In this document: in pieces, positions 9,590 to 55,196 of the stretch
Layout of the letters: each line of letters begins with the position of its first letter
Position numbering within the stretch: the stretch's first letter is position 1
NCBI GenBank assembly: GCA_963402885.1
Contig: OY727094.1
Location: forward strand, 9,798,501-9,862,500
DNA: 64,000 bases
Source of the DNA: Antedon bifida
Lineage: Eukaryota > Echinodermata > Crinoidea > Comatulida > Antedonidae
Direction: 5' to 3'
Position numbers and translations under genes: made by a program
Notes under the pieces: model-generated
What the model was told of the DNA's origin: nothing
What the model saw: the letters and a program-made list of their open reading frames with translations, nothing else
The model's database searches: none

Positions 9590-10870
9590 GGATTGTCATA
9601 TTAACCCAGATTTATTGTTGAAGTTCATCTCATCATCCCCACATGTGCATATCTGTCTTCATTTAAGTTAAGAATCACTATTTGTCCCGAGTCTAATCAT
9701 GTGGTGATGTGCAACCTGTTCAGAAAATAAAGAAATTATTTATGATTAAAAAATGTTCAATTCGCTGAATTTGATGTTAAAGAATAATGTAAACAAACAA
9801 ACCTTCTTGTAACAGCTATCAGAGATCTTTCACACGGTTGTTGAAAAATTGTATAATTATAAAAAGAGACAAAACAAATGAAAAAGAGGCTCCACACAGA
9901 GATGTCAATGTTGTTGAAGAAATGAAACAATTGCACATACTTGACTTGACTTGTTGAGCAGAACAAATTGTCAAGAAGAATTTGTAATTTTTGTTTCACC
10001 AACATTTTTTAATGAAAATAGTACATAATATTACCTTCTAAATAACTGTCATAGGTCATGTAAGTTTTAGTACCTTCAAATTATCAATAAATGGTTGCAT
10101 ATCTTGCTCACGGATTACGCCTCTTGCCTCAAGATCCATGATAAAATGCCATTTATCTTCATAAACCGTGGCCGCATTAAGAAAGCTCTTAATTGATTTC
10201 ACATCTTTCTCGGTCAGCTTGTAACCAAATTTGACCAACATCCGTCTGTGAGGAGCCAATTGTGAAAAGCTAATAGCTCTAACGTTTGAGAATGCTCCAA
10301 TTTCCTCTTGAATTGTTGTTGCCAATCTGAAGAGTTATGTTGCTTTTATGGTTTGATAGAGCAAAGTGTAGTCCTCCTTTGTCAGATGCTCTCTGTCTGT
10401 TAATAGATTGAGCAGGTTTAGTGTGCTAGATGCTTCATCAAACTGACCAGTTGGATGAATTAAGCCAACTTACTCAATTAATCTTTATGTTGAGCGAAAT
10501 TCAAGTTGTCATATATAACATGCAGATTTATTAATGAAGTTCATCTCATTGTCCTCTTGTAACACATGTATACATTCTGTCTTCATTTAGGTTGAAAGTC
10601 ACTCTTTGTGTCTTAAGACTGACCCTCTGATGGTGTGCAACCTGTGCAGAAATTAAAAAAATGATTATTTATATATAAATGTGCAGATAGATGAATTATT
10701 TACATAACAAACAAATCTTGATGTAATGATTGTAATATGTATATAAAATAATGTCATAATTCAAGTGACACAACAAAACATTTAAAATGAAAAAATAACA
10801 AAGATGCCCCACACCAAAATGAAAATTTAAATGATGAAATAAAACAATTTGAAAATTCTTAAAACCTTTA
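9590..10870. repeat. Tandem segmental duplication around the DED exon
   Basis: The block 9590-9960 resembles 10500-10870: shared phrases include GAAGTTCATCTCAT, the CTGTCTTCATTTA stretch and GTGCAACCTGT, plus an AT-rich stretch ending near a polyCACAC-like run. Each block is followed at higher coordinates by a DED exon copy (10044-10480 decayed, 11292-11819 intact). The unit is roughly 0.9-1.3 kb. Confidence 0.7.
10044..10480 (-). pseudogene. Decayed copy of the tandem DED exon
   Basis: The minus strand aligns codon by codon with the exon at 11292-11819 (for example SNVRAISFSQLAPHRRMLVK and [20 protein letters not shown]). It carries an in-frame TAA after KAT where the other has Glu, further stops near the 3' end (TGA, TAG), a length change near its 5' end, and no matching acceptor or first 20 codons. 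The 3' donor sequence GAAG|GTAATA is still present. It arose by tandem duplication together with flanking non-coding DNA. Confidence 0.85.
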
Positions 10871-11291: not shown

Positions 11292-11819
11292 CTTCCAATA
11301 TAACTTGCAAAGGTCTTTGAAGTTTCAGAAGCTTCAAGCTGTTGATAAATGGCTGCATATTTTGCTCACAGATTTCGTTTCTTGCCTCAAGGTCCATGAT
11401 AAAATGCCATTTATCTGCATACACCTTGTGTTCCACTTTAAAATAGCTTTTCATTGATTCCACATCATCTCCGGTCAGCTCATCACCAAATTTGATCAAC
11501 ATCCGTCTATGATGAGTTAATTTTGAAAAGCTAACAGCCCTAACATTTGAGAACACTCCAATTTCCTCTTGAATTTCTTTTGCCAATCCAAATAGTTCCG
11601 TTGCTTTTATGGTTTCAGAAAGCAAAGTAAAGTCATCTCTGGTCAGATGTCCTCTGTCCGTTAAACAATTTAGCAGGATTGGTGTCTTTGATGCGTCAAC
11701 TAACTTACCAGTTGGCAGGAGATCTTTGTACAATACTTTCAGCATATTGAGTAAACAACGATCATCACACAATTGTGCAAATCTTACTTTAATTTGGACA
11801 AATTTAGAATCTGAAATTC
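11292..11819 (-). CDS. Exon 20: tandem DED exon
   Basis: A 528-bp exon, phase 1 at both ends (ttgtag|GAATTTC to GAAG|GTAATA). Residues 1-90 form a [76 protein letters not shown]. Residues 95-176 form a second, more divergent DED ([20 protein letters not shown] and [20 protein letters not shown]). Two DEDs in a row recall FLIP and procaspase-8, but no caspase domain follows in the window. It joins exon 19 in phase. The next exon is not identified. Confidence 0.8.
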
Positions 11820-14800
11820 CTACAAAATAGAAAGAAAAAGGAAAAAAAGTTACAAAATAAGATTATATATAATATTCACAATTTAGGTAACAGACCAAAA
11901 TAATAGAGATATAACAAAAATAAATAAAAAATAACAAATCCTAATATTCTGGTTTTACTTTGACTGCCTGTTTGTACTTTCACAGGACCTAACTACAATA
12001 CAAGTTGCAAACATAAATTATTCACCAATTATTTTGCCAACAAAACATTACGGTCATCATAAATTAATTAGTTCATTTGGTTGGTGTCCAATTAAACCAT
12101 TTCTTTATTAATGTAGTTGAATTAATATACATTTAAATTCTACACTGGTAACATTTCATAACATGTTATTTACAAACACAATTTATATTTGGAAATTTTT
12201 TTAAAATTTTGATTATTGTATTAAATTTGATTAAAAATTGTAAATTCACCGCCTGAAAACCATATAAACGGACAATTAGCAGCCACGATGAATATTTATG
12301 TAGATACCATAAATATGACAATGAGAGAACATTCATTTGTTATAATTCTGTTTGTTTTGAAAAAGTGTGTAACATTAAAGCCCCCTTCCCTACAATTTGT
12401 GACGTTTTGTAAAAATAATACATATATATTACTTTAAAAACATTAAACCATGTCATTCCTTGTCTTAAATGTACGTTTTATGGTAAATTATGATAAAAAG
12501 TGAGAAACAATGCACTACCTAAGTAGCTCGCGGCGATCGACCTCTCGTGGACGGTCTTAGGCCTAGCCTAGCTAGGCTTAGTTTTGTAGGCCTAGCTGGT
12601 AAACATCGGTAACGTACGAACATCGTACGCTAGCTATATACCTAGCCTGAAGTTGTATAGTTGCTGCATTAATTGTCTTTCTATTTTTGCCAGACTCCGT
12701 TGATACAAATTAGGGAAAACCCGGTATTTTCGCTGAAAAGTTAGGAGTCTTCCATTTGTTTTGGCCTCACAATCGATCGAAAAGTGGGCGAATTACAGGT
12801 GAAAAACAAAAATATCAATCCGCGCGCAATGCATTTTGGGATTTATAGCGGGCCGCTATAATTATTAGAATCAACTTATTTTTCACATTTTTAACCGTTT
12901 AAAGACGAAAAAAGTTATCGCAATAGGACCATATAGTATTATTTTTACATTAAATATAGTTTGTGATCTTAAATTAGATCTAAAAAACGTAGGGAAGGGG
13001 GCTTTAATTGTAAGTAGTACTGGTCTAAAGTTTCAGAATGCCATCAAAATAATGTTTTCAAACTACTTTACATTAATCTTGAACCTAAACCCAAGTTGAA
13101 CAACAGAATCCTGAGATACATTAAATGCAAAATTCTGAGATTCTATTTGAACTCATATCTACGTTTCAATTCATCTAGAATGTTCTTTTATGTTTATTGA
13201 TATCATATCATATCTATCATATGCTTTTAAGTTTACTGAAACATTATTGTATACCTTTTTTTCTCTTCTGTTTTGAAGTAGTTTTTCGGCCATCACAAGA
13301 GTACCCTACAATTGCATTAAAAAGACTACAAAAGTTAATGCTCAGTTGTATTGTATCTTGTCTACATTTTTGTATGCATTATAGTCGATACATTTTAAAA
13401 TGATTTTGATTAAATCATAATAGCAGTTACATTAAAAAGTAGTAATAAGTGCAATTTAATATTTTCAACCTGAATTCTCTTCTTCATTGGACATGTCTGC
13501 AGTTGCTGCTTTCTTTCTTTTGCGGGTTCCTTTTAAAGCAGATGCTGTAATAAAGAATTGTTTTCAACAATTTAATGAAAGCACTCAGAAACTGACTGAA
13601 GAACTTGGCAAAATATTGCCACAGCATTGATATTTCGGCACATGTAAGAATACAACTTTTTCTTTTCTTTTATTTGCACACATTTGCATATCTAACAACT
13701 GAATCATTCTCATATCTACAGTTCAATCAATTCAAACGCTCATTTCTTTAAGCTTTTATTGAAACTCTATATTTATTAAGTTGCTGTATTTTCTACATTT
13801 ACGTTCACTCTCATCATACCTTGTCATGATACAAAAACATATTGTATAAATATATTTACTTGTTTTTTCTTGGCCAAACAATTTACAGTAATGTTTCACA
13901 TCCATTTTGTTTCTCCCACAAGGTAACTCATCAGTATCAAACTTGTGAATAGCATGCATATGAGCATGTTCATTGTTTGAACAACATGTACAACGGATGT
14001 GCATCTTCATGTCAAGACCACGTGTATCCTTCTGACCGAACATTTTCAGTTCTTTTTCAAGGAAACAAAGAACCTAGAAAAATATAATAGTGTACATAAG
14101 TAAACAGACATATCAAAATTAGTAGAATTATCATGTCTCAGTCAGTAAGTGGAATAATCAAATCCTAAAACATCAATTGTTTAAACATAATCAAACATTA
14201 TTATTTTCAAAAAAACAAGTATAGAGACAGTAAATTTAAAGACCCCTTCCCTGCAATTTTGGACGTTTTTTGGAAAATAATACATATATATCACTTTAAA
14301 AACATTAAACCATGTCATTCCTTGTCTTAAATGTACGTTTTATGGTAAATTATGATAAAAAGTGAGAAACAATGCACTACCTAAGTAGCTCGCGGCGATC
14401 GACCTCTCGTGGACGGTCTTAGGCCTAGCCTAGCTAGGCTTAGTTTTGTAGGCCTAGCTGGTAAACATCGGTAACGTACGAACATTGTACGCTAGCTATA
14501 TACCTAGCCTGACGTTGTATAGTTGCTGCATTAATTGTCTTTCTATTTTTGCCAGACTCCGTTGATACAAATTGGGGAAAACCCGGTATTTTCGCTGAAA
14601 AGTTAGGAGTCTTCCATTTGTTTTGGCCTCACGATCGATCGAAAAGTGGGCGAATTACAGGTGAAAAACAAAAATATCAATCCGCGCGCAATGCATTTTG
14701 GGATTTATAGCGGGCCGCTATAATTATTAGAATCGACTTATTTTTCACATTTTTAACCGTTTAAAGACGAAAAAAGTCATCGCAATAGGACCATATAGTA

Positions 14801-17800
14801 TTATTTTTACATTAAATATAGTTTGTGATCTTAAATTAGATCTAAAAAACGTAGGGAAGGGGGCTTTAATTATGTAATTTGATTAATGGTTTTCTATAAA
14901 CAGTAAACCATATAAACATAGGAACCAACAGTTATAGTTATGTTGTTTGAATATTATTTTTACATCTTAGCTTTACCTTCTTGCATACTTCAGGCTGTGG
15001 CTTAATGTCATCTTCTGTGCATTGGTGTCCTGAAGAACTACAGGTATTGATGAGTTTTGTTCTGACTATTGTTGTCTGAAATATTTATAAAATGACTGGT
15101 AGTTTACAAAATATATCTGAAATTTATTTCTATAAAATTGTTGTACTTTAAATGTACAATAATTTGTAGAAGTGATTAAAGTTTAAAATCTGATGATGAT
15201 GGTATATCAATGTTTTAAATTAAAGCTTTAAAGTATAAACAATTATACCTGTAACATACGGCGACAGTTTATGGTAGCCACATATAGAATGACTAGATGA
15301 TTGGCATCAACATTTAATTCTACATGCTGATAAGATAATTTAGGTTCAACATCTTTCATTTGGAATTTCTTGATGAATTTAGTTGCAGCACGCTGAAAGA
15401 GATCATCTGGAAGATAGCTACCACGATCAACCCTTCCTTCTCTCTGTTTAATAGCTGTAACAAATGATTTAGCAAAGGTATTACATTTTACATTATCATG
15501 GAAATAATAACTGATATAATACTGTAATAAATATTTTAAAACAACTAGGGTGGTCAAACGTGCATGTGAATACAGACCTTTTTTGTGAAAAATTTAAAGA
15601 ATATAAAAAGTTGTATTTTAACTGTTTGAAGATTTTAAGACGCTGTCAGTTTCAAATTAAAGTAAGGGAATAGAGAATAAGAAAAGATAACATATTTTGA
15701 ATAAATTGGGTTTATGATGTTTTAAAGTACCACTACAGCAACAACTATTTATATCCTAGAAAATCTACTAGAAATATTTGTTTTCTATAATCAGTAGCTT
15801 AAGTAATGTTATGACTTTGTATGTACTTAAATCATAAAACAGCAAAATTTGTTGTTTTAAAAATGTACTAAGTATAAGTGCAATTGGCATATATTAAATT
15901 AATTTTATATTGACAATTTTTTTTTCATTTTGCTTATTTGTATTTACTGTATTAAAATGTGGCACATGGTTCAATCTATTGACTTTTTATGAATATAAAG
16001 TAAATTAAAAAACACATTTAGAAAATCTACTACAGTATTTAGGTGGTGTAGTACTAAACATTGATTAAATAAATGAATTGTTTACATTTATATATATTTA
16101 TATATATATAAACACATCAGGCATAGAACATCAATTCTAAACCGCCTGGTGATATACTGAAATTTTAATTAATTAATTTGAAACGATAAAGATGAGGAAA
16201 AATGTGAGAATGAGAAAAAGTCACCCAACCGAAACTCGAACCGGGAACCTTCTGCTTGATATGCAGATGTCCTAACCAATAGACCACTTCATTTCATGGT
16301 ATTTCACTATAGTCCCTCAATTCTACGCACGCAATATATTAAATTATGAATGAAAACAAGTGAGATGCTTGTACAAAAAGAAAAATAAAAAAAAACTACC
16401 AAAATCATGAAAGAGAGTAATTGCACGCTTTTCATCAAACTCAGGTGGTGGTGAGATGCATGGTTTCAGACGCGAGAGAACATAGAAAATTTGTCCATCA
16501 TTCTATAAAATAAAAAGAATATTGTGTAAATTTTGGAAATTAAGATAAAGAAATATCAGTTTCAAATCATTCATGGGTTTATCATATTATATTCATATCA
16601 AATTAATACCTTTGTACTTTTCTGTTCACACATCAGACCAAAGTTTTGCATGAGAGACGTAAAGAAGTTAAAAGTCTCATCAGAATCAGAGAACTCTTTC
16701 CATAGATGTCTCAACAAACCAACTTCTAGAATACCAGTATCCAGTCTTCTCCAAGCCCTCTTCATAATTGGCTTCTGTTATATTACAAGAAAAAAATTAA
16801 TTTCAATTAATGGACAAGTAATTTATGAGCAATTGTTTATACTGTTTGTATATAATTGATAATGAGATTCTTGTTTGTTTTCTATCTATCTACCATGTTT
16901 ATTTATTAAATACTATAACGCAATACAAACTAAATTTGTTGATTTGAACAGCGGGCCATTATTAGTGTTCAAAATGATGTTTATATAGAACATTTACTCT
17001 ACTAACCATTTCTTCTGGGTCTATGACAGTGATCACTGTTTTGAAAATGTCAACTAGTTTCATCAGATCTATAACTATTATGTATTTTAGTGCCTCGTCA
17101 TCTGGGAAGTAGAGAATCTCGCCGATGTCATGTAAATACTCAAGCAGAACTTGTTGATCTTCTTTTACTTCACAGTCATTTAATAAATCAAAGACCTAGA
17201 AAAAAGTTATTGAAAACCGTATTGGAGTTTGAAAAAAAGTATAAAGATTCTAAAAGATTGGCACTTTTTTTCTGGCTGTTTTACTTTTGATTTTTATTTT
17301 CATTAAGATCAACCAGTGATACTACAGCATTGTCAGTTTGTCAGTAATTTTCTCCTTGGGATTACTCCATCTCATGCCGCATCTTGAACTTTATTGTTGC
17401 AATGCATTATATAAATAAATTGAAATTAACATAAAATATCTCATATAAAAAATACAAAACATTGCACTCAAAAGGTAATCTTATTTTCTACTAAAGTCTA
17501 CAGAAGCGCAAGAAAAGATGCAACATCTGCCTTAAAAAAAACTATTTATCACCTGTCACCCATCAACAATCGACAAAAAAAACCCATTATTACGTAACAA
17601 CTAACCATCCAAAACTTACCACCTGTGTAACAACTGTATGATCATTTAATTAGTAACCTAATAAGTAACGTCAGTGCCATAACCAGCGTGTTGACATTTT
17701 TTATGAATGTTATTTGTGATAGTATCATTTCCGACCACGTAGGGGTGTCATTTAAGAAAATTCACTTTGCCACAGGCCCCACCAAATGATTCACAATGTA

Positions 17801-47800: not shown

Positions 47801-50800
47801 TCTTTGTTCCTTCTGTCCTCGTTTTGTCATGTGTTTTGTCCTGTGTCTTTGTTCCTTCTGTCCTCGTTTTGTCATGTGTTTTGTCCTGTGTCTTTTTTCC
47901 TTCTGTCCTCGTTTTGTCACGTGTTTTTGTCCTGTGTCTTTGTTCCTTCTGTCCTTGTTTTGTCACGTGTTTTGTCCTGTGTCTTTGTTCCTTCTGTCCT
48001 CGTTTTGTCACGTGTTTTTGTCCTGTGTCTTTGTTCCTTCTGTCCTCGTTTTGTCACGTGTTTTTGTCCCGTGTCTTTGTTCCTTCTGTCCTCGTTTTGT
48101 CACGTGTTTTTGTCCTGTGTCTTTGTTCCTTCTGTCCTCGTTTTGTCACGTGTTTTTGTCCTGTGTCTTTGTTCCTTCTGTCCTCGTTTTGTCACGTGTT
48201 TTTATCCTGTGTCTTTGTTACTTCTGTCCTCGTTTTGTCAAGTGTTTTTGTCCTGTGTCTTTGTTCCTTCTGTCCTCGTTTTGTCACGTGTTTTTGTCCT
48301 GTGTCTTTGTTCCTTCTGTCCTCGTTTTGTCACGTGTTTTTGTCCTGTGTCTTTGTTCCTTCTGTCCTCGTTTTGTCACGTGTTTTGTCCTGTGTCTTTG
48401 TTCCTTCTGTCCTCGTTTTGTCACGTGTTTTTGTCCTGTGTCTTTGTTCCTTCTGTCCTCGTTTTGTCACGTGTTTTTGTCCTGTGTCTTTGTTACTTCT
48501 GTCCTCGTTTTGTCAAGTGTTTTTGTCCTGTGTCTTTGTTCCTTCTGTCCTCGTTTCACGTGTTTTGTCACGTGTTTTTGTCCTGTGTTTTCTTGTGCTT
48601 TTGTATTACCTTAATTCTTTTTCTTTATTCTCGTTATTTATTCATTTATTTACTCATATTTGGTTATCCGCACTTGGCGGATAACCCCTTGTTATTGTCA
48701 CGATCTTTTTTTTTTTTTTTCTATATTCTTCTTTCTTTCCCAGAATTTTGTGTCACGTGTATCTCAAATTCTTCTTAACATTACATTGTATAACTTTGTC
48801 AGAAGATTGACCTCTATCTGTAGAAGTGCAGGACAGTTAGTTTTTTTACTTTAGAGTCGCGCAGCGTAAGTTACGCGTGATTTTATGAATTTCGCGTATT
48901 TAACATAGACTAAAAACCAAAAGTCATTTTGTAATGACACTTGGTGAACATTTAAGTCATATCAAGGGCAAACTTTCTATGGATTAAAAATGGCATGTTT
49001 GACAGAAATTTACGCGCGCACGCGCGTTTAAAATTTCAAAATGCGAAAAATCAACTTCTAATCAACTTTCTACGCGTTTCATGTCATTTTGAGCATTTCA
49101 AAAATTCCCACGCACGGCAATTATTTTACGCGCGCGTGCGCATATAGCGCAAAATTATAATTTTTCCGCGTGATTTATGTTTTTCTAGCCTTTTCTAGTA
49201 ATTTTACCAATTTTTTAACAATTTCGCCTTAAAATCACGTCATACGAGCACGTGGAATTGGATAATTTGCGCACGTTTTTGATGAAATAGTTCAAAAATT
49301 CGTCAAAATTATGCCCTTTTTTAAACAGTCATAGATTCTAAACTACAAGGTGAATTTTATTGTTTATTACATATTCTGAAAGTAGATGAGTTGTAGATAT
49401 CGAATCATGCATTGATATGTCTAACTGGATATTGTGACGTCATCGTATGGCCACTCGAATATAAAACATAGGATTTTTGTCTCTTTCGTCATAGCTCATC
49501 GCATTTAATAGAGCGCATCTCCATTTATCCGTATTTCATTTTCCCCATGTTTTTATAGTGTCTAGGTCAATCAATTATCTTTCGCATGATTTACCGTTTT
49601 TAAATTTGTTGTGACGTCATCATGTCCAAAAGCGTCAATAACTTTGGTCACTTATTTTCACCTATTCTTCACTGTATGTAGTACGTATACAATATATAGT
49701 GTAAACTGTTTATACTTAGACGTGACACAAAATAGAGAGCGCACTAACATTTTTCCAATGGCATAAGCGTTTTTCTCTGCGCAATATTCTAACGTATGAC
49801 GTGCACGTGGCGTTTACTCTGCGGATAACCTAACTCGTCCGTAGTGACGAGTTCAAATCTAGTTTATTTTTTATATTTGTTTATTTATTTATTGACTACT
49901 TTTGAAACAGTTATTATATACTTTTATATACTTTTTGAATTATTTTTTTCTGGTGGAACTAACCGTAAAGCCCTATATATTAGACTAGCGTAGAGTTAAA
50001 TAATCAGGTTTCGAGAATACTATTCTCATCATCAGAACTAAAATCAACAGTTTGAATGACCCATCACATCCTGATTGGTCAAATTACCCGAGCGCTTTTG
50101 TCTTTGCATTTTGTGCGAACTGCATTTAATGTGCTAATTTAGAGCAGTAACAGTAAGAGAAAAACCGTGTAGCTTTTCCTACAGAATCTAAATCTATACT
50201 GAGCATGACATAAACATGGATTCGTATGTGTACCTGTCAGTAAAATCATTAAATATTTTAGTGGTAACTCTTGAACAAACTACTAAAATATCATTTTATT
50301 AATCAACTTTACCTATTGTTCTCAACCCTAGTTGATACAATAATGCAGTAGTTTGGTTTATAGTCGACGGTGGTGGCTATACACCATAAAATGATACGAA
50401 ATGTTAAACATAAACAATTCAAATATTGAGCAATTATTTTTCATCTTCAATATGGAGATAAAAGTAAGTTCCTACTGTAAAACTAAATGTTTGCATGCCA
50501 CATATTATATGACTGTTTTTTTTAATATTTAGTATTTCTTTATTAAGTACGTTAGTCTACAGTAAATAGGAAAATGTAGAAAGAAACAAGGGGCATCAAA
50601 TTGTCAAGTTTTTCAGCTTTTTTGAAAGTTATTTATGGTGTAGTTAAAAAATCTAGATAGATTTTATAAACAGCTGTTTTATCTCAAGTTTTATACACAC
50701 ATGCAACCATGATATATGTAAATTGTAAAGTGTGAACAGGCCCTTACTTACCATGAGTCCATGATCTGTCTGAAGCATTTCTGAGAGGCAAACACACAGG

Positions 50801-53800
50801 ACAGTCACTACGAGTACAATTCTTCCAATGTGAGATTATTTGACGAGACGATACGCAGTGAGGCACTACAAGAAGGTAAAACCAGATTATTATTACTGTA
50901 AACGTTCAATCAATCAAATTAGGAACTATTTTTAGGCCAATAATTATTAAAGATGCTGTCAATTTAGTCTAGTCACATAAATCGGTTATCACATACCCCC
51001 TCTCCACTCTCCACCCCCCACTCCCACATCACCAACACGAACAACATTTTGTATTTTTACTTTAGTTTCAATTTCAATTTAATTTATTTCCAGAAAATAA
51101 TAACATACAGTATAATAAATACAAAATGAAGTAATCATGTTGGGGGGAGAGTTGTTGAACCCACAAATGTGCAAAACAACCACAAATGTGAAAACAGCGC
51201 CAACAAATGTAAAAAAAAAAAACCTTTTCGCCCACAAATGTAAACAAATAATCTAAATTTAGTGTTGGCCCAAACAATTTTGATAGAGTTAATGTTAATG
51301 TATTTTTATATGTTGTATTGAGTTGTTTCAATAATTGTGTGTTCACGATACGTCTGTTAGGGTCGTCGTTAACGCGTTGGATTATTACCATTTGCTGCTC
51401 GTGTGCGCGTTGTTTGCATGCTAACTCGTTGGTTTAATGTACATATAGTTCAAGACGATATTTGTTATTTGCGCATGCATGATACTTCAAGGTCAAGGCC
51501 ATGTTATATCATTGTTGCTTGAAGTGTGCAGTTAACTTGTTGGCTTACTATTATTTACGTATAGTTCCAAGTCGATGCAAAAAACATCGAACATCGACTT
51601 GAAACTATACGTACATAATAGTAAGCCAACAACCACACACTACACACTACTTAAAATGTTTTTCTTTAATTAAAATATTATCAATTTTGATTTTTAAATG
51701 ATTATTATTCCCTCGGACGTGTCTTCTGTCACTTGCGAAATATAACAAATTAGTTTTATCAATATTTAACTTTGAACCAATCTGAGACATACAGTAATTC
51801 CCTATTGGAGTGTTTCAAAAAGTTTATTAATATTTTTATGTGATAAATTTTTATGTTTTCATCAGAAAATAATATACAATTTAATAACTCAGAGGAGGTT
51901 GGGATATCATGTACATAAATAAGGAATAAGTAAAGGACCTAAAGTAGATCCTTGTGGTACCCCGCAGTTTACAGGCAGTAAATTAGAAGTATGTGAATAA
52001 AAATAGGTTTACTGTCGTAAAGATAATTCAATAATAGAAGAGAGAGTCCTCTGATGCCATAATGTTCAAGTTTATGTTTTAAAATGGTATGATTAATAGT
52101 GTCAAAGGATTTCGATAAATCCATAAAGACTCCAACGGTATGTTTATTTTAGCAGAGGCGATTTTGTTTACAGATATCTACTGTAGCAATGCTAGGTCAG
52201 TTGAGTGTTCTTTACGAAAACCACACTGATTAGGGGGAAGAATATCAATAGTGTTTAAAAAATCAATGAGTCTAGATTAACTTTTCAAACCCTTTCGAAA
52301 AGCATGAAAGAAGCGATATCGGACGATAATTAGATATAATGTGACGGTCATCTTTTTTATGATAGGGATAATTTTAGCTATTTTAGGTGCTGTGGGAAAA
52401 ATCCCAGTAAGAATAGATAAGTTAAAAATATGAATAAGTGGTCGAACTATAAATAGTGCTATTTGTTTAATCCATTGTCATCATATCCGGTGCTTTTTTA
52501 CCAGATTTTGCTTTATTTACCTCTGCCAAGGAAGTATTGTAATCGATCGCGCGCGTTTGTTACTTGGCCAAATTGAAAATTGGCCAAGTATGTTGATCGG
52601 TGCGGTTTGTGTGGGGGTGTGTGTGTGTTTGTTTGTCATCACTCTAGCGCTCACAATTTTGATTCGAATAACTACAAATTACTGTCATACATGTTCTATT
52701 GTTAGTCGCCTGAAGCTATTGTTAGTTGAAAGGCTGGTAATACATAACCTTTACACCAAACTCGTATACACATGATTGTATTGAAATTAGCCTAAATCAC
52801 ACGGCATTAAGACACACACTTTTGGTGAAAATCGTGTCAAGGTCAGGAGGCCAATTTTGATTTGGCCAAGTATCGCGCTATGCGCGAGGACTAGTTACTT
52901 GGCCAAATTGAAAATTGGCCAAGTATGTTGATCGGTGCGGTTTGTGTGTGTGTTTGTGTGTTTGTTTGTCATCACTCTAGCGCTCACAATTTTGATTCGA
53001 ATAACTCCAAATTACTGTCATACATGTCGGCTGGTGCAAGGACGACACTGCCCAATTTTGGTGAAAATCCGGACCACAGTCCTAATTCTAGACCACTTTT
53101 TAGACATTTTTTCAGACCTGCTAGTGTTAAGAGATAAGACAGAATTTTCACATGCCGGTAAGCAGTCTTAAAGTAACAAGTAAACTAAAATTGCATTTTC
53201 TCGAGAACTACTTGTCCAAAAAATTTCATTTTTGTAAAAGAGGGAAGAGTTATTATTTTTGATTTGTAAATTTTAAAACATAATTAGATTTAATATACAG
53301 GTTTTTTGATGCGAGTAGTTTAAAGAACCTACTTCTTTTCAAATTCACCCGTGTGTTTTTTCGCGTTGCTGTTCTATTATTAGTCGACTGAAGCTATTGT
53401 TAGTTGAAAGGCTGGTTACATAACCTTTACACCAAATTCGCATACACATGATTGTAGTGAAATTAGCCTAAATCACACAGCATTAAGACACACACTTTTG
53501 GTAAAAATCGGGTCAAGGTCAACAGGCCAATTTTGATTTGGCCAAGTATCACGCTATGCGCGAAGGCTAGTTTGTTTGTCTGTTTGTTTGTTAGCAAGAT
53601 TACTCAAAAAGTAATTACAAGATCTTTACCAAAATGAATACAATAGATAGGTGCTCAAGGACCATTCCATTAAATTTTGGGACCATGGTCCCAATTCTGG
53701 ACCACTTTTTAGTATACTTTTCAGACCTGCTAGTGTTAAAAGATAGGACAGAATTTTTCAAAAGCTGGCGAGCAGTCTTAAAATAACAAGTAAACTGAAA

Positions 53801-55196
53801 TTGCATTTTCTCGAGAACTACTTCTTTTTTGTACAAGAGGCAAGAGTTATCATTTGTGATTTGTAATTTTAAAACATAATTTGATTTAACGTGCACCTTT
53901 TTTGATGCGAGTAGTTTAAAAAACCTATTTCTTTTCATATTCACTCGTTTGATTTTCGCGTTGCCGTTCTATTGTTAGTCAACTGAAGCTATTGTTAATT
54001 GAAAGGCTTGTTATACATAACCATTACACCAAACTCGCACACATGCTTGTAGTGAAATTAGCCTAAATCACAAACAGCATTAAGACACACACAAATTTAT
54101 ATATATTTATATTTTCCCGGAGAAATCTTACGTAGGAGAATTTTACAGTAGGCGGAGGTATGCACTCTCGGAGTGGCTTTTAGTTTATATTTTAACCCAA
54201 TATTTCATTTATATTTTTCCATGTTTGCTTAATACTATTTTTATATAAATTAAATTTATTAGCATATTTCTGGCATGCATGAATCAAATGTTTTATATTT
54301 ATTTTTAGCCAATGTATTATCATTAATATTAGTTTTTAAGAATTGTTTGTAGAATCTGTCCCAGGTGTTTTATTGATTTTATTATGGCCAAAGTGATCCA
54401 TGGTTTTCTTTCCTTTCCTCTATTTTTTTAAGTTATTTTAATGAGATATTCATAAGCATTGGAAAAATTACTAAGAAATATATCATATGCTTTATTACAG
54501 CAGTTATTAACATTAAATACGTCTCTGTAGTGCCACTAAACTAGAACGATAAATTTATGGGATATGCACAGGTCAATTACGAGTCCATCCAATGTGATGC
54601 GAAAACTAACTATTGGTTAAAATAAGAACTAGCTTTATAAAGGATGACATATAATATTTACCTGTACAGTTCTTGCCAGCTTTACAAACTGTCAGGTGAT
54701 TGAGTACATTTTTCATGATCTGACAGTGTGGAAATGAGCATTGTTTTAATTCACCGTTAGCCTGGCTTTCCCTCCGCTGACACTTGTGTGCGTGTAGAAG
54801 GAGCACTAGTTCCTGCTGAATACGTTTTGTTTTCTCAGGATCTCTTGGAGCTTGAGTTGAATTTGTGCCTATCGCAGCTTGATGAGCTTGAGATTCATTT
54901 TTGCCTATTGCAGCTTGCTGAGCTTGAGTTGCATTTGTGCCTATTGCAGCTTGATGAGCTTGAGTTTCATTTTTGCCTATTACAGCTTGATGAGCTTGAG
55001 TTTCATTTTTGCCTATTACAGCTTGCTGAGCTTGAGTTTCATTTTTGCCTATTACAGCTTGCTGAGCTTGAGTTTCATTTTTGCCTTTTACAGCTTGCTG
55101 AGCTTGAGTTTCATGTTTGCCTATTACAGCTTGATGAGCTTGAGTTTCATTTTTGCCTTTTACAGCTTGCTGAGCTTGAGTTGTATTTGGGTTCAT
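11292..55196 (-). CDS. Chimeric multi-exon gene: TAZ1 - KIX - Roc - COR - tandem DED
   Basis: Twenty exons on the minus strand were linked by GT/AG sites and reading phase (18 of 19 junctions agree). The product of about 1,300 residues has, in order, a 12-residue repeat tract, TAZ1, KIX, a Roc GTPase with P-loop GLERVGKTS and G3 WDFGGQ, COR, a Cys/His-rich segment, a basic linker and two DEDs. TAZ1 and KIX of CBP/p300 bind transcription-factor activation domains. Roc-COR is the GTPase module of LRRK/DAPK-type ROCO proteins. DEDs bind other DEDs in apoptotic and inflammatory complexes. A role linking GTP-regulated death-fold signalling to transcription is inference. The P-loop exon to next exon junction is out of phase by one base, and the terminal exon is not identified. 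Two separate genes is the alternative, but the KIX to P-loop junction is only 475 bp long and phase-compatible, which argues for one transcript. Confidence 0.8.
12379..13003 (+). mobile_element. MITE flanked by TTAA (copy 1)
   Basis: A 625-bp non-coding element between TTAA at 12375-12378 and TTAA at 13004-13007. Inverted ends: AGCCCCCTTCCCTAC at the left and GTAGGGAAGGGGGCT at the right. TTAA duplication is the hallmark of piggyBac-type transposition, so this is probably a piggyBac-derived MITE. It sits between exons 20 and 19 of the chimeric gene. Confidence 0.85.
13470..13544 (-). CDS. Exon 19: basic linker exon
   Basis: A 75-bp exon with phase 1 at both ends (attacag|CATCTG to TTCAG|GTTGAA), encoding [20 protein letters not shown] plus EENS. 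RKRKK could act as a nuclear localisation signal, which would suit the TAZ1/KIX modules; this is inference. It can be skipped without changing the frame. Confidence 0.75.
13860..14073 (-). CDS. Exon 18: Cys/His-rich post-COR segment
   Basis: A 214-bp exon, phase 0 to 1, encoding [19 protein letters not shown], then [37 protein letters not shown] and [14 protein letters not shown]. The spacing of CTCC, HAHMH and LPC resembles the metal-binding-like region after COR in many invertebrate ROCO proteins. Zinc binding is inferred only from the Cys/His pattern. Confidence 0.85.
14240..14865 (+). mobile_element. MITE flanked by TTAA (copy 2)
   Basis: About 96% identical by eye to the element at 12379-13003, same orientation, between TTAA at 14236-14239 and 14866-14869. 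It sits in the intron between exons 18 and 17. The high similarity suggests recent activity. Confidence 0.85.
14977..15075 (-). CDS. Exon 17: post-COR segment
   Basis: A 99-bp exon, phase 0 at both ends (ttcag|ACAACA to AAG|GTAAAG), encoding 33 residues: [19 protein letters not shown] then [14 protein letters not shown]. It links COR to the Cys/His-rich segment; the final CKK runs into VLCFLEKEL of the next exon. Confidence 0.78.
15249..15454 (-). CDS. Exon 16: COR C-terminal part
   Basis: A 206-bp exon, phase 1 to 0, entered at tgttacag|CTATTAAA. It encodes [39 protein letters not shown] and [24 protein letters not shown]-x-L-F-x-R corresponds to the F-L-P-x-G-x-F-x-R segment of COR. The acceptor was chosen because only it restores the frame from exon 15. 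Confidence 0.85.
16206..16292 (-). pseudogene. tRNA-like sequence or SINE head
   Basis: The minus strand has a good box A (TGGTCTATTGG) and box B (GGTTCGAGTTTC). An anticodon-arm-like stem TCTGC/GCAGA encloses the loop ATATCAA. The acceptor ends do not pair and the T stem has mismatches, so it is not a working tRNA. It lies in the intron between exons 16 and 15 and may be a tRNA-derived SINE relic. Confidence 0.6.
16400..16502 (-). CDS. Exon 15: COR domain, short exon
   Basis: A 103-bp exon, phase 0 to 1, encoding [20 protein letters not shown] then [17 protein letters not shown]-x-S-R-L matches the COR strand where the consensus is FYVPSRL; the usual Pro is Leu here. The donor TTTG|GTAGTT is weak but keeps the frame into exon 16. 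Confidence 0.82.
16610..16774 (-). CDS. Exon 14: COR domain
   Basis: A 165-bp exon, phase 0 at both ends, encoding 55 residues: a basic stretch ([20 protein letters not shown]), [20 protein letters not shown] and [12 protein letters not shown]-x-L-x-x-x-L-L-x-x-x-W followed by L-M-x-x-F-G-L is usual for COR. Confidence 0.9.
17007..17195 (-). CDS. Exon 13: COR domain
   Basis: A 189-bp exon, phase 0 at both ends, encoding 63 residues including [20 protein letters not shown] and [19 protein letters not shown]-x-x-L-H-D-(I/L)-G-x-I-L-Y-F and the D-x-x-x-L-V-D-x-F-K-x-V-I-T stretch are characteristic of COR. Confidence 0.92.
17196..18151. other. Intron between exons 13 and 12
   Basis: AT-rich intron without recognised repeats or exons. 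Confidence 0.5.
18152..18397 (-). CDS. Exon 12: end of Roc and start of COR
   Basis: A 246-bp exon, phase 0 at both ends (tccag|GTTGC to AAG|GTAGGC). It encodes 82 residues: [34 protein letters not shown] and then [18 protein letters not shown]. The (I/L)P-I-S-W-L-x-F-x-E-K block marks the Roc to COR boundary in ROCO proteins. Confidence 0.88.
19072..19248 (-). CDS. Exon 11: Roc G4 region
   Basis: A 177-bp exon, phase 0 at both ends, encoding 59 residues with [15 protein letters not shown] and [20 protein letters not shown]. The G4 motif of ROCO proteins is usually T-H-x-D; here it reads THLN, with Asn where the guanine-specifying Asp is expected. It is separated from exon 10 by an 8.4-kb intron that holds a full-length LINE. 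Confidence 0.88.
20276..23900 (+). mobile_element. Nearly intact CR1/L2-like LINE with a PHD finger
   Basis: Open from 20276 to 21466, then from 21505 to 23670. Parts in order: a basic region ([20 protein letters not shown]), a PHD-type zinc finger ([20 protein letters not shown] with WFHSHC and WTCTIC), an AP endonuclease ([35 protein letters not shown]), then reverse transcriptase ([67 protein letters not shown]). One base is missing near 21455 (NTSLI instead of [12 protein letters not shown]); otherwise it looks whole. It fills the intron between exons 11 and 10, in the opposite orientation. Confidence 0.9.
24065..24537 (+). repeat. Partial hairpin-ended repeat copy
   Basis: Matches the reverse complement of 48650-49110: ATGCTCAAAATGACATGAAA, CGCGTAGAAAGTTGATTAGA, and the end GATCCTGACAATAACAAGGG. 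The copy lacks the terminal hairpin GGTTATCCGC...GCGGATAACC and has a long A tract at 24460-24490. Confidence 0.65.
25450..26505 (+). mobile_element. LINE remnant (RT C-terminal half)
   Basis: [17 protein letters not shown] carries the YADD box at about 25495-25540. Broken frames further on give [12 protein letters not shown] and [14 protein letters not shown]. It ends in GATTGATTGATT. Several frame changes; dead. Confidence 0.75.
26506..27618. other. No gene recognised
   Basis: Intronic DNA between exons 11 and 10. A segment at about 27255-27390 has repeated TTCGTA/TACGAA motifs and may be a small repeat element; its ends were not defined. Confidence 0.4.
27619..27708 (-). CDS. Exon 10: Roc beta strand after G3
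   Basis: A 90-bp exon, phase 0 at both ends (ttgtag|ATC to ACT|GTAAGC), encoding [20 protein letters not shown] then [10 protein letters not shown]. It fits the Roc strand with the V-F-N-L(S)-x-D-L pattern directly after the G3 helix. Confidence 0.85.
28210..28373 (-). CDS. Exon 9: Roc G3 (DFGGQ)
   Basis: A 164-bp exon, phase 1 to 0, donor CGG|GTAAAG. It encodes a helix ([18 protein letters not shown]) and then [25 protein letters not shown] is the DxxG (G3, switch II) motif in the WDFAGQ form usual for Roc domains. Confidence 0.9.
29290..29600 (+). repeat. Three imperfect tandem copies of about 110 bp
   Basis: Each copy begins with GAAATTATCACGTGTGTTCA or a variant (29300, 29395, 29512) and contains ATTCCATTTGATGTACAC-like sequence at its end. 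Non-coding, in the intron between exons 9 and 8. Confidence 0.7.
30143..30487 (-). CDS. Exon 8: Roc insertion with 24-residue repeats
   Basis: A 345-bp exon, phase 1 at both ends (ttcaaag|CTAAAG to GAGG|GTAAGA). It starts with a helical stretch ([20 protein letters not shown]), then [14 protein letters not shown], then two and a half copies of a 24-residue unit of the type [20 protein letters not shown] plus CKH. It falls between the G2-like exon and the G3 exon, so the repeats form a Ser/Thr/Glu-rich loop inside the GTPase domain. TSTEGV also resembles a ROCO G2 motif, so which exon carries the true switch Thr is open. Confidence 0.75.
30150..30345 (-). repeat. 72-bp coding tandem repeat in the Roc insertion
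   Basis: Two full and one shortened copy of a 72-bp unit (24 residues) lie within exon 8; the third copy lacks a few codons but keeps the frame. The unit contains the phrase TCCAGATCCAACATGTCTGT on the plus strand at each repeat. Confidence 0.85.
30686..30870 (+). repeat. Left end of a second TTAA-flanked element family
   Basis: TTAA followed by AGATGTATTGTCCCCC; the inverted form GGGGGACAATACATCT then TTAA occurs at about 43480-43498. A subterminal hairpin, AACCAGAAGTCGGTTGGCT with AGCCAACTGGCTTCTGGTT, lies at about 30818-30860. The matching right end of this copy was not found. Confidence 0.55.
31085..31300 (+). repeat. Two tandem copies of about 110 bp
   Basis: Copies share GTGCTCAAGTG(A/G)ACCCAATTTGG then CCAGTG(G/A)AGCACAGTG, with an AT-rich spacer. 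Non-coding, intronic. Confidence 0.65.
32849..35820 (-). mobile_element. Minus-strand LINE remnant (CR1/L2-like C-terminus)
   Basis: On the minus strand: [20 protein letters not shown] and [20 protein letters not shown] at 35540-35813. The frame continues after the inserted Penelope-like element as EYAVPVWHSS, then [21 protein letters not shown] poly-T at 32849-32866 is its reversed poly-A tail. It is split by the element at 33497-35484. Confidence 0.8.
33497..35484 (+). mobile_element. 5'-truncated Penelope-like element
   Basis: An open frame to 35383 encodes a Penelope-type reverse transcriptase ([71 protein letters not shown]) and a C-terminal GIY-YIG endonuclease ([20 protein letters not shown], then an HN-type helix). 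The frame is open from the insertion point, so the 5' part is missing while the rest looks whole. The flanks carry the 11-bp duplication TACTGGGACAG (33486-33496 and 35485-35495). Confidence 0.9.
36042..38547 (-). mobile_element. MITE copy 3, split by a LINE
   Basis: Both halves match the TTAA MITE in reverse: 36042-36165 (CCCTACGTTTTTTAGATCTA) and 38158-38547 (GCGGCCCGCTATAA, TTTCGATCGATCGTGAGGCC). TTAA is at 38548-38551 and TTGA at the other side. This copy is more diverged than the other two and is interrupted by the LINE at 36170-38157. Confidence 0.8.
36170..38157 (+). mobile_element. 5'-truncated LINE (CR1/Jockey-like RT), decayed
   Basis: Coding starts at the insertion point ([20 protein letters not shown]), shifts frame near 36420, then continues with an RT core: [55 protein letters not shown] and [18 protein letters not shown]. 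The catalytic box reads YVEDLS instead of YADD. A frame change near 37345 leads to the C-terminus ([14 protein letters not shown]). It ends in AATAAAGAAATAATAAAATT. Not functional. Confidence 0.85.
38552..39840. other. Intronic DNA; possible LINE 5' region
   Basis: No gene recognised. The last few hundred bases may be the 5' UTR of the LINE that follows, but no boundary was seen. Confidence 0.4.
39870..42960 (+). mobile_element. Nearly intact single-ORF LINE (endonuclease + RT)
   Basis: It begins with [19 protein letters not shown], an AP endonuclease ([28 protein letters not shown]). Then reverse transcriptase: [78 protein letters not shown]. The C-terminus contains [16 protein letters not shown]. 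One base shift near 40207 separates the frame ending at 40229 from that running to 42826. No ORF1. It ends in GGAATAAAGTTACT. Clade uncertain; RTE/Proto2-like is a guess. Confidence 0.85.
43190..43497. repeat. Right part of a TTAA-flanked element
   Basis: Ends in GGGGGACAATACATCT then TTAA, the inverted form of the end at 30686. The left boundary is unclear. Confidence 0.45.
43860..43953 (-). CDS. Exon 7: Roc switch I (G2) region
   Basis: A 94-bp exon from ttcaaag|CAAGAC to GACGT|GTAAGT, phase 0 to 1, encoding [20 protein letters not shown] and a short acidic tail with a Trp. The D-A-I-S-T-T block resembles the Thr-containing G2 stretch that follows the P-loop in metazoan ROCO proteins. Only this frame is open, so it cannot join the phase-2 P-loop exon directly. 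An undetected small exon or a one-base defect is implied. Confidence 0.65.
44173..44555 (+). mobile_element. Short hairpin-ended element (internally deleted copy)
   Basis: Left end ACTAGATTTGAACTCGTCAC with an internal palindrome (AACTCGTC...GACGAGTT). The right end is GATCCTGACAATAACA then CGCCAAGTGCGGATAACC. The same two ends, in reverse, bound the element at 48650-49862. Non-coding. Confidence 0.7.
44629..45378. mobile_element. TIR transposon remnant beside the P-loop exon
   Basis: Inverted ends: CTATTACCGTAGTTCCTCGG then GTATAATCCCACCCCC at the left, and GGGGTGGGATTATACCCGGG with AACTATGGTAATAG at the right. A second inner copy of the CTCGGGTATAGTCCCACC motif lies at about 45296-45313. 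About 750 bp, non-coding. Its right end is 12 bp from the P-loop exon. Confidence 0.75.
45390..45552 (-). CDS. Exon 6: Roc P-loop (G1)
   Basis: A 163-bp exon, entered in phase 1 and left in phase 2 (AAAGG|GTAAGC). It encodes [20 protein letters not shown] and then [33 protein letters not shown] before GLERVGKTS is typical of invertebrate ROCO proteins; GxxxxGKT(S) is the nucleotide-binding P-loop. A TIR transposon ends about 12 bp inside the following intron. The phase at the next exon does not match by one base. Confidence 0.85.
46028..46205 (-). CDS. Exon 5: KIX C-terminal helix and linker
   Basis: A 178-bp exon, phase 0 to 1, donor AACA|GTGAGT. It encodes [20 protein letters not shown] followed by a Ser/Pro/Gln-rich linker. 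The Tyr and Lys that match CBP Tyr658 and Lys662, known contacts for phospho-CREB, appear conserved; the residue matching Lys659 is Gln. The exon joins in phase to the P-loop exon 475 bp downstream. If that intron were retained, a short TAZ1-KIX-only protein would result. Confidence 0.9.
46520..46637 (-). CDS. Exon 4: KIX core
   Basis: A 118-bp exon (ttaacag|GGTTC to TAGG|GTAAGA), phase 2 to 0. It encodes [18 protein letters not shown] and [21 protein letters not shown], close to the CBP/p300 KIX sequence including the [10 protein letters not shown] helix that forms part of the activator-binding groove. Confidence 0.92.
47087..47180 (-). CDS. Exon 3: start of KIX domain
   Basis: A 94-bp exon entered in phase 1 and left in phase 2 (AGATT|GTAAGT). 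It encodes a short linker and then [19 protein letters not shown], equivalent to the start of CBP KIX (GWHEHVTQDLRSHLVHKL). The split Leu codon is completed by the first base of the next exon. A plus-strand LINE tail begins only about 20 bp upstream of the acceptor. Confidence 0.88.
47200..47470 (+). mobile_element. LINE remnant (C-terminal tail)
   Basis: Encodes [40 protein letters not shown] and [14 protein letters not shown], the tail seen after RT in CR1/L2-type LINEs. It is 5'-truncated and starts about 20 bp from the first KIX exon. Confidence 0.7.
47545..48590. repeat. 46-bp minisatellite, about 22 copies
   Basis: Head-to-tail copies of TGTCCTGTGTCTTTGTTCCT, TCTGTCCTCGTTTTGTCACG and TGTTTT (45-47 bp). 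Most contain CACGTG. Copy-to-copy changes are few and shared between distant copies, as after recent expansion. Long open frames on both strands here are by-products of the repeat length and low stop content. Confidence 0.95.
48650..49862 (-). mobile_element. Hairpin-ended non-autonomous element, fullest copy
   Basis: On the minus strand it starts ACTAGATTTGAACTCGTCAC then TACGGACGAGTT (palindromic) and ends GGGGTTATCCGCCAAGTGCG with GATAACC (palindromic). The interior shares about 450 bp with 1-500 and about 400 bp with 24065-24500. Many GCGCGC blocks; no coding capacity. The 46-bp minisatellite adjoins it. Confidence 0.7.
50752..50865 (-). CDS. Exon 2: C-terminal part of TAZ1
   Basis: A 114-bp exon, phase 1 at both ends, with acceptor tgtag|TGCC and donor CATG|GTAAGT. 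It encodes [20 protein letters not shown] then [19 protein letters not shown]. This completes TAZ1: the H-W-K-N-C-T-R and C-P-V-C-L-P-L signatures are those of CBP/p300, with the third zinc site present. Joined to exon 1 it gives AGKNCTV-PHC, the order expected for the family. Confidence 0.9.
51539..51630. ncRNA. Near-perfect 39-bp-arm hairpin
   Basis: Left arm GTTGGCTTACTATTAT...CAAGTCGATG pairs with right arm CATCGACTTG...ATAATAGTAAGCCAAC around a 14-base loop (51578-51591), with about four mismatches. The size suits a small-RNA precursor, but a tiny foldback transposon is equally possible; transcription is unproven. Confidence 0.45.
51640..52540 (-). mobile_element. LINE remnant (RT fragment)
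   Basis: On the minus strand the phrases [19 protein letters not shown] and [15 protein letters not shown] are recognisable in broken frames: the RT stretch around the first catalytic Asp and the conserved G-V-P-Q-G-S. Many stops; old. Confidence 0.7.
52560..52894 (+). mobile_element. Helitron-like unit 1 (short)
   Basis: Starts with the hairpin TTACTTGGCCAAATTGAAAA then TTGGCCAAGTA. It ends GGCCAAGTATCGCGCTATGC then GCGAGGACTAG, that is a CGCGC/GCGCG hairpin followed by CTAG. The next unit begins at the following base. Confidence 0.7.
52895..53570 (+). mobile_element. Helitron-like unit 2
   Basis: Same start as unit 1, and the same kind of end (CACGCTATGCGCGAAGGCTAG). It has about 340 bp more interior than unit 1, including TTTTCAGACCTGCTAGTGTT and CTGAAGCTATTGTTAGTTGA. 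Head-to-tail with unit 1. Confidence 0.7.
53571..54182 (+). mobile_element. Helitron-like unit 3 with another 3' end
   Basis: The interior repeats that of unit 2, but the start lacks the TTGGCCAA hairpin and the end is GGCGGAGGTATGCACTCTCG then GAGTGGCTTTTAG, the same 3' end as the element at 5846-6260. It looks like a related subfamily fused in tandem. Confidence 0.65.
54662..55196 (-). CDS. Exon 1 (as seen): coding minisatellite plus first two-thirds of TAZ1
   Basis: From the ATG at 55196 the frame gives about nine or ten 12-residue repeats of the type [12 protein letters not shown]. Then comes [40 protein letters not shown] and [17 protein letters not shown], which follows the CBP/p300 TAZ1 finger almost residue for residue, with its His/Cys zinc ligands. 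The exon ends at ACAG|GTAAAT in phase 1. The frame is open a few codons upstream to a TGA, and a good acceptor (ttgcag) lies about 45 bp upstream of the ATG. This ATG is therefore a plausible start after a non-coding exon, but further upstream coding exons cannot be excluded. Confidence 0.85.
54848..55190 (-). repeat. 36-bp coding tandem repeat (12-residue QA-rich units)
   Basis: About 9.5 head-to-tail copies of a 36-bp unit lie inside the first coding exon, each encoding a variant of G-(K/T)-(N/H)-(E/A/S)-(T/S)-Q-A-(Q/H)-Q-A-(V/A)-(I/K). The copies keep the frame and mostly differ by single substitutions, so the array expanded recently. The product is polar and Gln/Ala-rich, presumably a flexible spacer before TAZ1. 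Confidence 0.9.

What the first reader, a model, noticed from the sequence alone, without database searches (positions are those of the whole stretch)
11292..55196. CBP/p300 TAZ1-KIX fused to a Roc-COR GTPase and tandem DEDs
Seen directly: TAZ1 and KIX coding exons with near-consensus CBP/p300 sequence, followed on the same strand and in phase by all main Roc motifs, COR, a Cys/His region and a tandem DED exon. Known: TAZ1 and KIX bind activation domains, Roc-COR is a GTP-dependent dimerisation switch, and DEDs nucleate death or inflammatory complexes. Inference: a GTPase that could carry a death-fold signal to transcription factors, or a decoy that titrates activators from CBP. I know of no described protein with this domain set.
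Basis: partly seen in the sequence, partly recalled or inferred. Interest (0 to 1): 0.95.

Follow-up and report, generated by a model that had tools for sequence, protein, structure and literature searches.

The report
CBP-bait domains on an immune-type GTPase
A feather star carries a gene that joins two docking domains of the gene-activation hub CBP/p300 to a GTPase with a cell-death tail; related joins occur in other marine animals, and one docking domain changes unusually fast, as expected if it serves as bait in an immune sensor.

Summary
A 22-exon minus-strand gene model (55196 to 10613), in phase throughout, encodes Gln-rich repeats, CBP-type TAZ1 and KIX, Roc, COR, a Cys/His region, two basic (NLS-like) exons and a probable tandem DED. 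Antedon mediterranea has an annotated protein with the same domains (87%, 100% covered). This genome holds a second, collinear, open copy about 39 kb downstream and a separate CBP gene on another contig. TAZ1(-KIX)-Roc-COR proteins also occur in a brittle star, a sea urchin and a coral, without a detected death-fold domain; their Roc-COR parts do not form one clade (AU p 5e-46), so the join was made repeatedly, at least three times by my reading. Between the two copies, KIX exons differ over 4 times more than their flanking introns (28/372 vs 20/1173, p 3e-7), mostly by replacements, while the Roc-COR core is constrained. COR-A exon matches are very numerous here (122, a lower bound). Best explanation: an immune GTPase with CBP domains as integrated decoy for proteins that hijack CBP, signalling through DEDs. 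No RNA or binding data.

The parts
54662..55196 (-). exon 1: Gln-rich 12-aa repeats, then first two thirds of TAZ1
   Evidence: repeat perhaps grown from the CBP linker (GPNATQTP in this genome's CBP)
50752..50865 (-). exon 2: last third of TAZ1
47087..47171 (-). exon 3: KIX helix 1 (alternative acceptor at 47159, same frame)
46520..46637 (-). exon 4: KIX middle
46028..46205 (-). exon 5: KIX end and tail; donor and first 39 bp of intron resemble the CBP intron
45390..45552 (-). exon 6: Roc N-terminus and P-loop GLERVGKTS
43860..43966 (-). exon 7: Roc switch I region
   Evidence: same residues in P0001
30143..30487 (-). exon 8: repeat-bearing insert in Roc
28210..28373 (-). exon 9: Roc G3 motif DFGGQ
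27619..27708 (-). exon 10: Roc
19072..19248 (-). exon 11: Roc, degenerate G4 (GTHLN)
18152..18397 (-). exon 12: end of Roc, start of COR
17007..17195 (-). exon 13: COR-A
16610..16774 (-). exon 14: COR
16400..16502 (-). exon 15: COR
15249..15454 (-). exon 16: COR
14977..15075 (-). exon 17: post-COR, Cys/His region begins
13860..14073 (-). exon 18: Cys/His-rich region
13470..13544 (-). exon 19: basic [11 protein letters not shown]-like
13255..13305 (-). exon 20: basic SKQKRKK, NLS-like
11292..11819 (-). exon 21: probable tandem DED
10613..10641 (-). exon 22: last codons and stop
10035..10454 (-). decayed second DED exon (stop codons), 95% like the DED exon used by the second gene copy

Best explanation
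A genuine single gene. WELL SUPPORTED BY SEQUENCE: in the crinoid line a CBP segment (TAZ1 to KIX, exon by exon) was copied upstream of a ROCO-DED gene; the break lies inside the intron after KIX, so an old CBP donor faces a ROCO acceptor in the same phase. INFERRED mechanism: the protein is an intracellular, probably nuclear, immune GTPase with an integrated decoy. TAZ1 and KIX are docking sites that activators, and viral proteins that hijack CBP, bind. A foreign or excess ligand on this bait would change the nucleotide-driven Roc-COR dimer switch and expose the C-terminal DEDs, which nucleate a caspase-8/FADD-like assembly.
For: Open in-phase 22-exon chain; same domain set in A. mediterranea; second full-length copy. 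CBP origin: same exon borders as this genome's CBP and a CBP-like intron start after KIX, 39 bp at 85%; crinoid fusions group with crinoid CBPs, 99/96. Repeated joining: TAZ-bearing ROCOs polyphyletic (AU 5e-46, AU 0.0014). KIX exons differ more than flanking introns: 28/372 vs 20/1173 (p 2.6e-7); replacements 25/274 vs introns p 2.7e-8; KIX+tail dN/dS 2.87 vs Roc 0.33, COR 0.38. CBP KIX is 95% identical between two crinoid genera, but 81% between the tandem copies. 122 COR-A exon matches in clusters; NACHT and LRR ORFs next door. CBP and KIX are targets of viral proteins (PMC3936767, passages). LRR-ROCOs of brown algae are proposed as immune receptors with diversifying selection (PMC11378527, abstract and passages).
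Against: No RNA, protein or binding data; I know of no crinoid virus that targets CBP. The brittle star, urchin and coral proteins show no DED or Death match even at E<=1, so the death output is seen only in crinoid fusions. dN over dS within KIX alone is marginal (one-sided p 0.047) and rests on one pair of copies. TAZ1 shows no excess over neutral (dN/dS 0.67; p 0.10 against intron 2). The recalled 12-ligand zinc pattern is whole in 3 of 6 fusions (window, P0014, P0159) and broken in 3 (copy B, P0001, P0100), against 3 of 3 CBPs whole, which fits relaxed constraint on TAZ1. Introns 3 and 4 show no alignable likeness to CBP. Cases outside crinoids are database gene models. After the once-over I lowered this from 0.5 to 0.48 because.
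Confidence: 0.48

Rival explanations
1. A genuine fusion that works inside the animal's own signalling: TAZ1-KIX reads host activators (CREB-, HIF- or NF-kB-like), or soaks them up as a dominant-negative of CBP, and the GTPase-DED part couples this to cell death or transcription.
For: KIX keeps Y658 and K662 in the window copy; the recalled TAZ1 zinc pattern is whole in the window copy; basic exons suggest nuclear location; CBP-fusion dN/dS 0.13-0.21 suggests long constraint.
Against: Host ligands should keep KIX conserved, but it changes faster than introns between copies, and the A. mediterranea protein has L at Y658. Repeated capture by an expanded ROCO family is not predicted.
Confidence: 0.22
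2. A genuine fusion whose TAZ1-KIX is losing function: a passenger under relaxed constraint on a working ROCO-DED protein.
For: TAZ1 dN/dS 0.67; zinc pattern broken in copy B, A. mediterranea and the urchin; A. mediterranea TAZ1 lacks helix 1 in its annotation.
Against: Relaxation alone should not push KIX replacements above the intron rate (25/274 vs 20/1173), unless conversion evened out introns but not exons; frames stay open in two copies here and in the annotated A. mediterranea protein.
Confidence: 0.22
3. Two adjacent genes: a truncated CBP copy ending after exon 5, and a ROCO-DED gene starting at exon 6; no joined transcript.
For: No RNA seen here; in-phase splice sites alone give only about a 3-fold argument.
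Against: Only a 475-bp intron lies between; donor and acceptor are kept in both copies and the donor is CBP's own; NCBI annotations join the parts in A. mediterranea and Amphiura; exon 6 has an acceptor and no Met between the upstream stop and the P-loop.
Confidence: 0.06
4. Assembly or annotation artefact.
For: The cases outside this genome are database gene models.
Against: Two full-length copies inside one 36.7-Mb contig and a second species' protein agree.
Confidence: 0.02

Closest known systems
CBP/p300 (KAT3)
   Same: TAZ1 and KIX sequence, exon borders, post-KIX donor
   Different: no bromodomain, HAT, ZZ or TAZ2 in the model; CBP's linker exon between TAZ1 and KIX is not in the model; KIX diversifies
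ROCO proteins (LRRK, DAPK1, MFHAS1, recalled; and invertebrate death-fold ROCOs such as S. purpuratus LOC752124)
   Same: Roc-COR core, death-fold partner
   Different: N-terminus is TAZ1-KIX instead of LRR, ankyrin or Death; G4 is degenerate, as in near kin
Plant NLR integrated decoys (RRS1/RPS4, RGA4/RGA5; PMC4246468, abstract read)
   Same: proposed logic: a copy of an effector target fused to a receptor as bait
   Different: GTPase is Roc-COR, not NB-ARC; output part is a DED; no ligand is known
Brown-algal LRR-ROCO candidate immune receptors (PMC11378527, abstract and passages)
   Same: ROCO expansion, exon shuffling, diversifying selection on the N-terminal part
   Different: LRR repeats, no captured host hub domain, no DED
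Caspase-8 / cFLIP / vFLIP tandem DEDs
   Same: predicted fold of exon 21
   Different: attached to a GTPase; no caspase domain in the model

Membership tests
ROCO GTPase | Roc followed directly by COR | tested here: met
   Roc 5.5e-10 and COR-A 9e-14, both over the cut-off
ROCO GTPase | G1 and G3 nucleotide-binding motifs | tested here: met
   GLERVGKTS and DFGGQ; motif definitions recalled
ROCO GTPase | canonical G4 (T/N-K/H-x-D) | tested here: not met
   GTHLN; kin also depart (P0002 THLN, P0014 THRN, P0100 THRE) while P0159 has TNLD; definition recalled; a trait shared with near kin
CBP/p300 | TAZ1 and KIX | tested here: met
   nearest row is this genome's own CBP, 87%
CBP/p300 | bromodomain and HAT | tested here: not met
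   absent from the model; pieces matching those parts of P0017 and P0018 lie in the separate C10 gene
tandem-DED protein | two DEDs in one stretch | tested here: inconclusive
   Pfam sees one, below cut-off; the first 43 fold hits are caspase-8, cFLIP or vFLIP DEDs, but E >= 9e-3
integrated-decoy immune receptor | bait copied from a host protein that is a pathogen target | tested here: met
   CBP-derived by sequence; CBP as viral target from PMC3936767, in mammals
integrated-decoy immune receptor | bait diversifies while the core is conserved: KIX | tested here: met
   one pair of copies
integrated-decoy immune receptor | bait diversifies while the core is conserved: TAZ1 | tested here: not met
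   dN/dS 0.67; no excess over intron 2, p 0.10
integrated-decoy immune receptor | binds a pathogen protein and triggers defence | not testable with these tools
   needs experiment

The most novel reading that the evidence does not exclude
Several animal lineages (crinoid, other echinoderm, coral) have independently turned the docking domains of CBP/p300 into integrated decoys on ROCO GTPases, an animal counterpart of plant NLR-decoy receptors, with the KIX bait under diversifying selection and, in crinoids, a DED output.
Probability: 0.38. Interest if true: 0.95.

Novelty: new variant of a known kind. Interest (0 to 1): 0.87.

Why it matters
If true, invertebrates guard a favourite viral target in the nucleus by fusing copies of it to a GTPase alarm, by a route parallel to plant integrated decoys and separate from NLRs. 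It would make the function of the large, mostly uncharacterised invertebrate ROCO families directly testable, and would flag fused host-hub domains as clues to what unknown viruses of marine animals attack.

Tried and rejected
Rejected: chance exons (22-exon chain, second copy, second species); a single ancient TAZ-ROCO gene (AU 5e-46 and 0.0014), although Amphiura and urchin TAZ1 group together (95/77), so the two may share one capture; their own CBPs were not in the set. Coral P0159: placement in the TAZ tree unresolved; one predicted gene model. Exon 30487 cannot follow exon 6 in phase, which led me to look for exon 7. The DED exons of the two copies are not counterparts, so their dN/dS (0.46) is not used. 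In the Fisher test (24:2 vs 21:16, p 0.002) the Roc and COR segments overlap by six residues, so a change there is counted twice. In the intron test, gap columns were left out and only the two ends of copy B's long intron 4 (314 of 3532 bases) could be compared. AF2 of the brittle star protein P0014 (18 rows): mean pLDDT 61.7, pTM 0.55; KIX and Roc-COR blocks mostly 70-90, TAZ1 about 45-57; too weak to say how the parts sit together, and not searched against the PDB. After the once-over I lowered the best explanation from 0.50 to 0.48 and the novel case from 0.40 to 0.38, and raised relaxed constraint from 0.20 to 0.22.

Full report
1. Observation. Working out splice sites on the minus strand by homology, consensus and phase gave 22 exons from 55196 to 10613, in phase at all 21 junctions. 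The product is 1322 aa, or 1326 aa with the longer exon 3. Pfam finds zf-TAZ, KIX, Roc and COR-A above cut-off, and one DED below cut-off. AF2 on the DED exon, with five rows, gave pLDDT 80.4; of 52 PDB matches at E<=10 (50 listed) the first 43 are DEDs of caspase-8, cFLIP or vFLIP, best E 9.4e-3, none at 0.001. Two basic exons ([15 protein letters not shown]) lie between the Cys/His region and the DED.

2. Independent support. A search of 5.8 billion proteins (7987 candidates scored, 96 at E<=0.001) returned an Antedon mediterranea protein, P0001, 87% identical over 100% of the query. It has KIX, zf-TAZ and COR-A above cut-off, Roc just below (26.5 of 27 bits) and DED at 9e-6. Its sequence follows my exon chain closely, including the small exons I had called before seeing it; it differs in TAZ1 (helix 1 missing), the TAZ1-KIX linker and the repeats. 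The window's genome (315.6 Mb, 27 contigs) is therefore probably a congener; no call names the species. A second copy (B) lies on the same strand at C7:9770119-9711589, collinear, with an open 1221-aa frame. KIX in the whole genome: 4 matches of 8 candidates, that is the CBP gene on C10 (2 exons), the window and copy B. zf-TAZ: 5 matches of 10 candidates, that is C10 (TAZ1 in 2 pieces, TAZ2) and the two fusion genes. The C10 gene gives tblastn pieces from TAZ1 through KIX and the bromodomain, HAT, ZZ and TAZ2 parts of other CBPs, plus a weak N-terminal piece (E 0.004); domain labels by order along P0017 and P0018; I did not look for its far C-terminus.

3. How the join arose. In CBP the third KIX exon ends ...CTCA|GTGAGTGTCTAGAAT, and in the fusion ...AACA|GTGAGTGTCTAGAAA. 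The first 39 bp of the introns align at 85%; introns 3 and 4 do not align with CBP's. So the fusion uses CBP's own donor, and the break lies in the intron. Exon 6 is reached in phase 1; in crinoid paralogues with other N-termini (P0002, P0015) the split codon reads D instead of N, as expected if the same acceptor serves different upstream exons (inference). The repeats of exon 1 look grown from CBP's GPNATQTP linker (inference).

4. Recurrence. Of the 236 proteins held, four carry zf-TAZ with Roc-COR in the Pfam columns: P0001; Amphiura filiformis P0014 (TAZ1-KIX-Roc-COR); Strongylocentrotus purpuratus P0100 (TAZ1-Roc-COR); Acropora digitifera P0159 (CBP-like N-terminus, TAZ1, Roc-COR) (140 of the 260 hits were not listed). 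P0014, P0100 and P0159 have no DED or Death match at E<=1; P0159's COR-A is just below cut-off. In a Roc-COR tree of 36 rows (35 chosen by me of 152 usable, plus copy B) each sits inside its own lineage's ROCO set: crinoids 100/100 (8 rows), Amphiura with P0097 100/100, urchins 100/100 (7 rows), Acropora with Montipora 100/100; holding the six TAZ-bearing rows together is rejected (p-AU 5e-46). A quick tree of 73 rows agrees. In a TAZ1+KIX tree of 22 rows, also my choice, the crinoid fusions join crinoid CBPs (99/96), Amphiura and urchin fusions join the Acanthaster CBP (96/88) and each other (95/77), Acropora is unresolved, and one clade of fusions is rejected (p-AU 0.0014). I read this as at least three captures, perhaps four. 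All but the crinoid case rest on database gene models.

5. Selection. Between copies A and B, Nei-Gojobori counts give dN/dS 0.67 for TAZ1, 0.33 Roc, 0.38 COR, 0.91 Cys/His region (5 changes), 0.09 basic exons (4 changes) and 4.34 for KIX (1 synonymous, 17 replacement changes); KIX plus tail 2.87 (2.5 and 25.5), with, when polarised by CBP, 13 replacement and 2 silent changes in A, 10 and 0 in B. KIX exons differ at 28 of 372 sites, introns 3-5 at 20 of 1173 (p 2.6e-7): intron 3 16/444, intron 4 0/309, intron 5 4/420; replacements exceed introns (p 2.7e-8). Exons 6-18 differ less than the introns among and after them (36/2115 vs 426/12182, p 5e-6). Each copy against CBP gives dN/dS 0.13-0.21, which suggests constraint first and fast change later. 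Within KIX, dN over dS alone is p 0.047 one-sided. TAZ1 replacements do not exceed intron 2 (p 0.10), and the recalled zinc pattern is whole in 3 of 6 fusions and 3 of 3 CBPs tested. Identity A/B: TAZ1 64/81, KIX 70/86, Roc-COR 584/603; A/P0001: 66/81, 69/86, 583/607. The CBP KIX is 95% identical between this genome and Anneissia. Changes include positions 603, 653 and 657, listed in PMC3936767 as a conserved allosteric network (here mostly swaps among I, L, M and V), and Y658, named there for CREB and c-Myb binding, which is L in A. mediterranea.

6. Context. COR-A gives 122 exon matches at E<=0.001 in this genome (248 candidates, 150 scored, so a lower bound), in clusters on several contigs; 8 are over the family's cut-off and about 50, counted by eye, contain stops, so some may be decayed or run into introns; copies A and B are two of the 122. 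Just upstream lie a NACHT ORF (63273-61933) and an LRR ORF (61929-60148), in one frame with a stop between. Basic clusters (5 of 8 K/R) after COR occur in 4 of 4 KIX-bearing fusions, 0 of 2 TAZ-only, and 3 of 18 other ROCOs examined, one of these the sister of P0014.

7. Mechanism. TAZ1 (recalled) and KIX bind short activation domains; CBP is a target of HTLV-1 Tax, E1A and SV40 T, and Tax, HBZ and HIV Tat bind KIX (PMC3936767, passages seen). A host target copied onto a receptor as bait is the integrated-decoy model (PMC4246468, abstract; PMC11781737, passages). Repeated capture by an expanded, shuffling GTPase family, a diversifying KIX and a constrained switch fit that model. The sensing step, the switch and the DED output are inferred. 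The strongest rivals are a domestic role and relaxed constraint; the latter explains the TAZ1 losses but not KIX change above the intron rate.

8. Novelty. Full-text searches of the open-access library: TAZ/KIX/ROCO/COR domain (one paper, listing only, with no KIX in it); ROCO/sea urchin/death domain/COR (two papers, one listed; its passages on Aplysia TIR-ROCO proteins read); TAZ zinc finger/KIX domain/GTPase/DED (none with three of the four terms); KIX domain, TAZ1, integrated decoy, echinoderm, crinoid (8 of 693 listed); Roc-COR and immunity (8 of 164 listed). By titles and abstract starts none of those listed describes such a protein; unlisted papers were not seen. PMC11378527, which counts some forty animal ROCO domain combinations, has no TAZ or KIX in its main text (figures not held). 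The proteins themselves are in NCBI as uncharacterised.

Noticed in passing
10454-10035 and C7:9712431-9711907: The terminal DED exon seems to have been duplicated before the gene was: copy A uses one version and its second is decayed, while copy B uses the second version (95% like A's decayed one, 84% like A's used one).
   Followed up: yes
63273-60148 minus: NACHT and LRR ORFs (NLR-type) directly upstream, in one frame with a stop codon between them.
   Followed up: partly
G000, contigs C1, C7, C8, C10, C12, C15, C16 and others: 122 COR-A exon matches, many in clusters: a very large ROCO family in a crinoid, part of it perhaps decayed.
   Followed up: partly
20243-23670, 33479-35383, 40205-42826 plus strand: Reverse-transcriptase elements lie inside the gene's introns; the first has a PHD finger and an endonuclease domain, and 33479-35383 ends in a GIY-YIG-like stretch (by eye), so perhaps Penelope-like.
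   Followed up: partly
47516-48778: Minisatellite between exons 2 and 3, open in several frames on both strands.
   Followed up: no
P0013 (Temnothorax americanus): Annotated protein with three TAZ1 copies and one KIX and no HAT: a free-standing CBP-docking-domain protein in an ant, if the gene model is right.
   Followed up: no
P0176 (Anneissia), P0110 (S. purpuratus), P0167 (Amphiura): Other ROCOs with different partners in their Pfam columns (Macro, DED and Death; ankyrin array; kinase), so domain capture looks common in this family.
   Followed up: no
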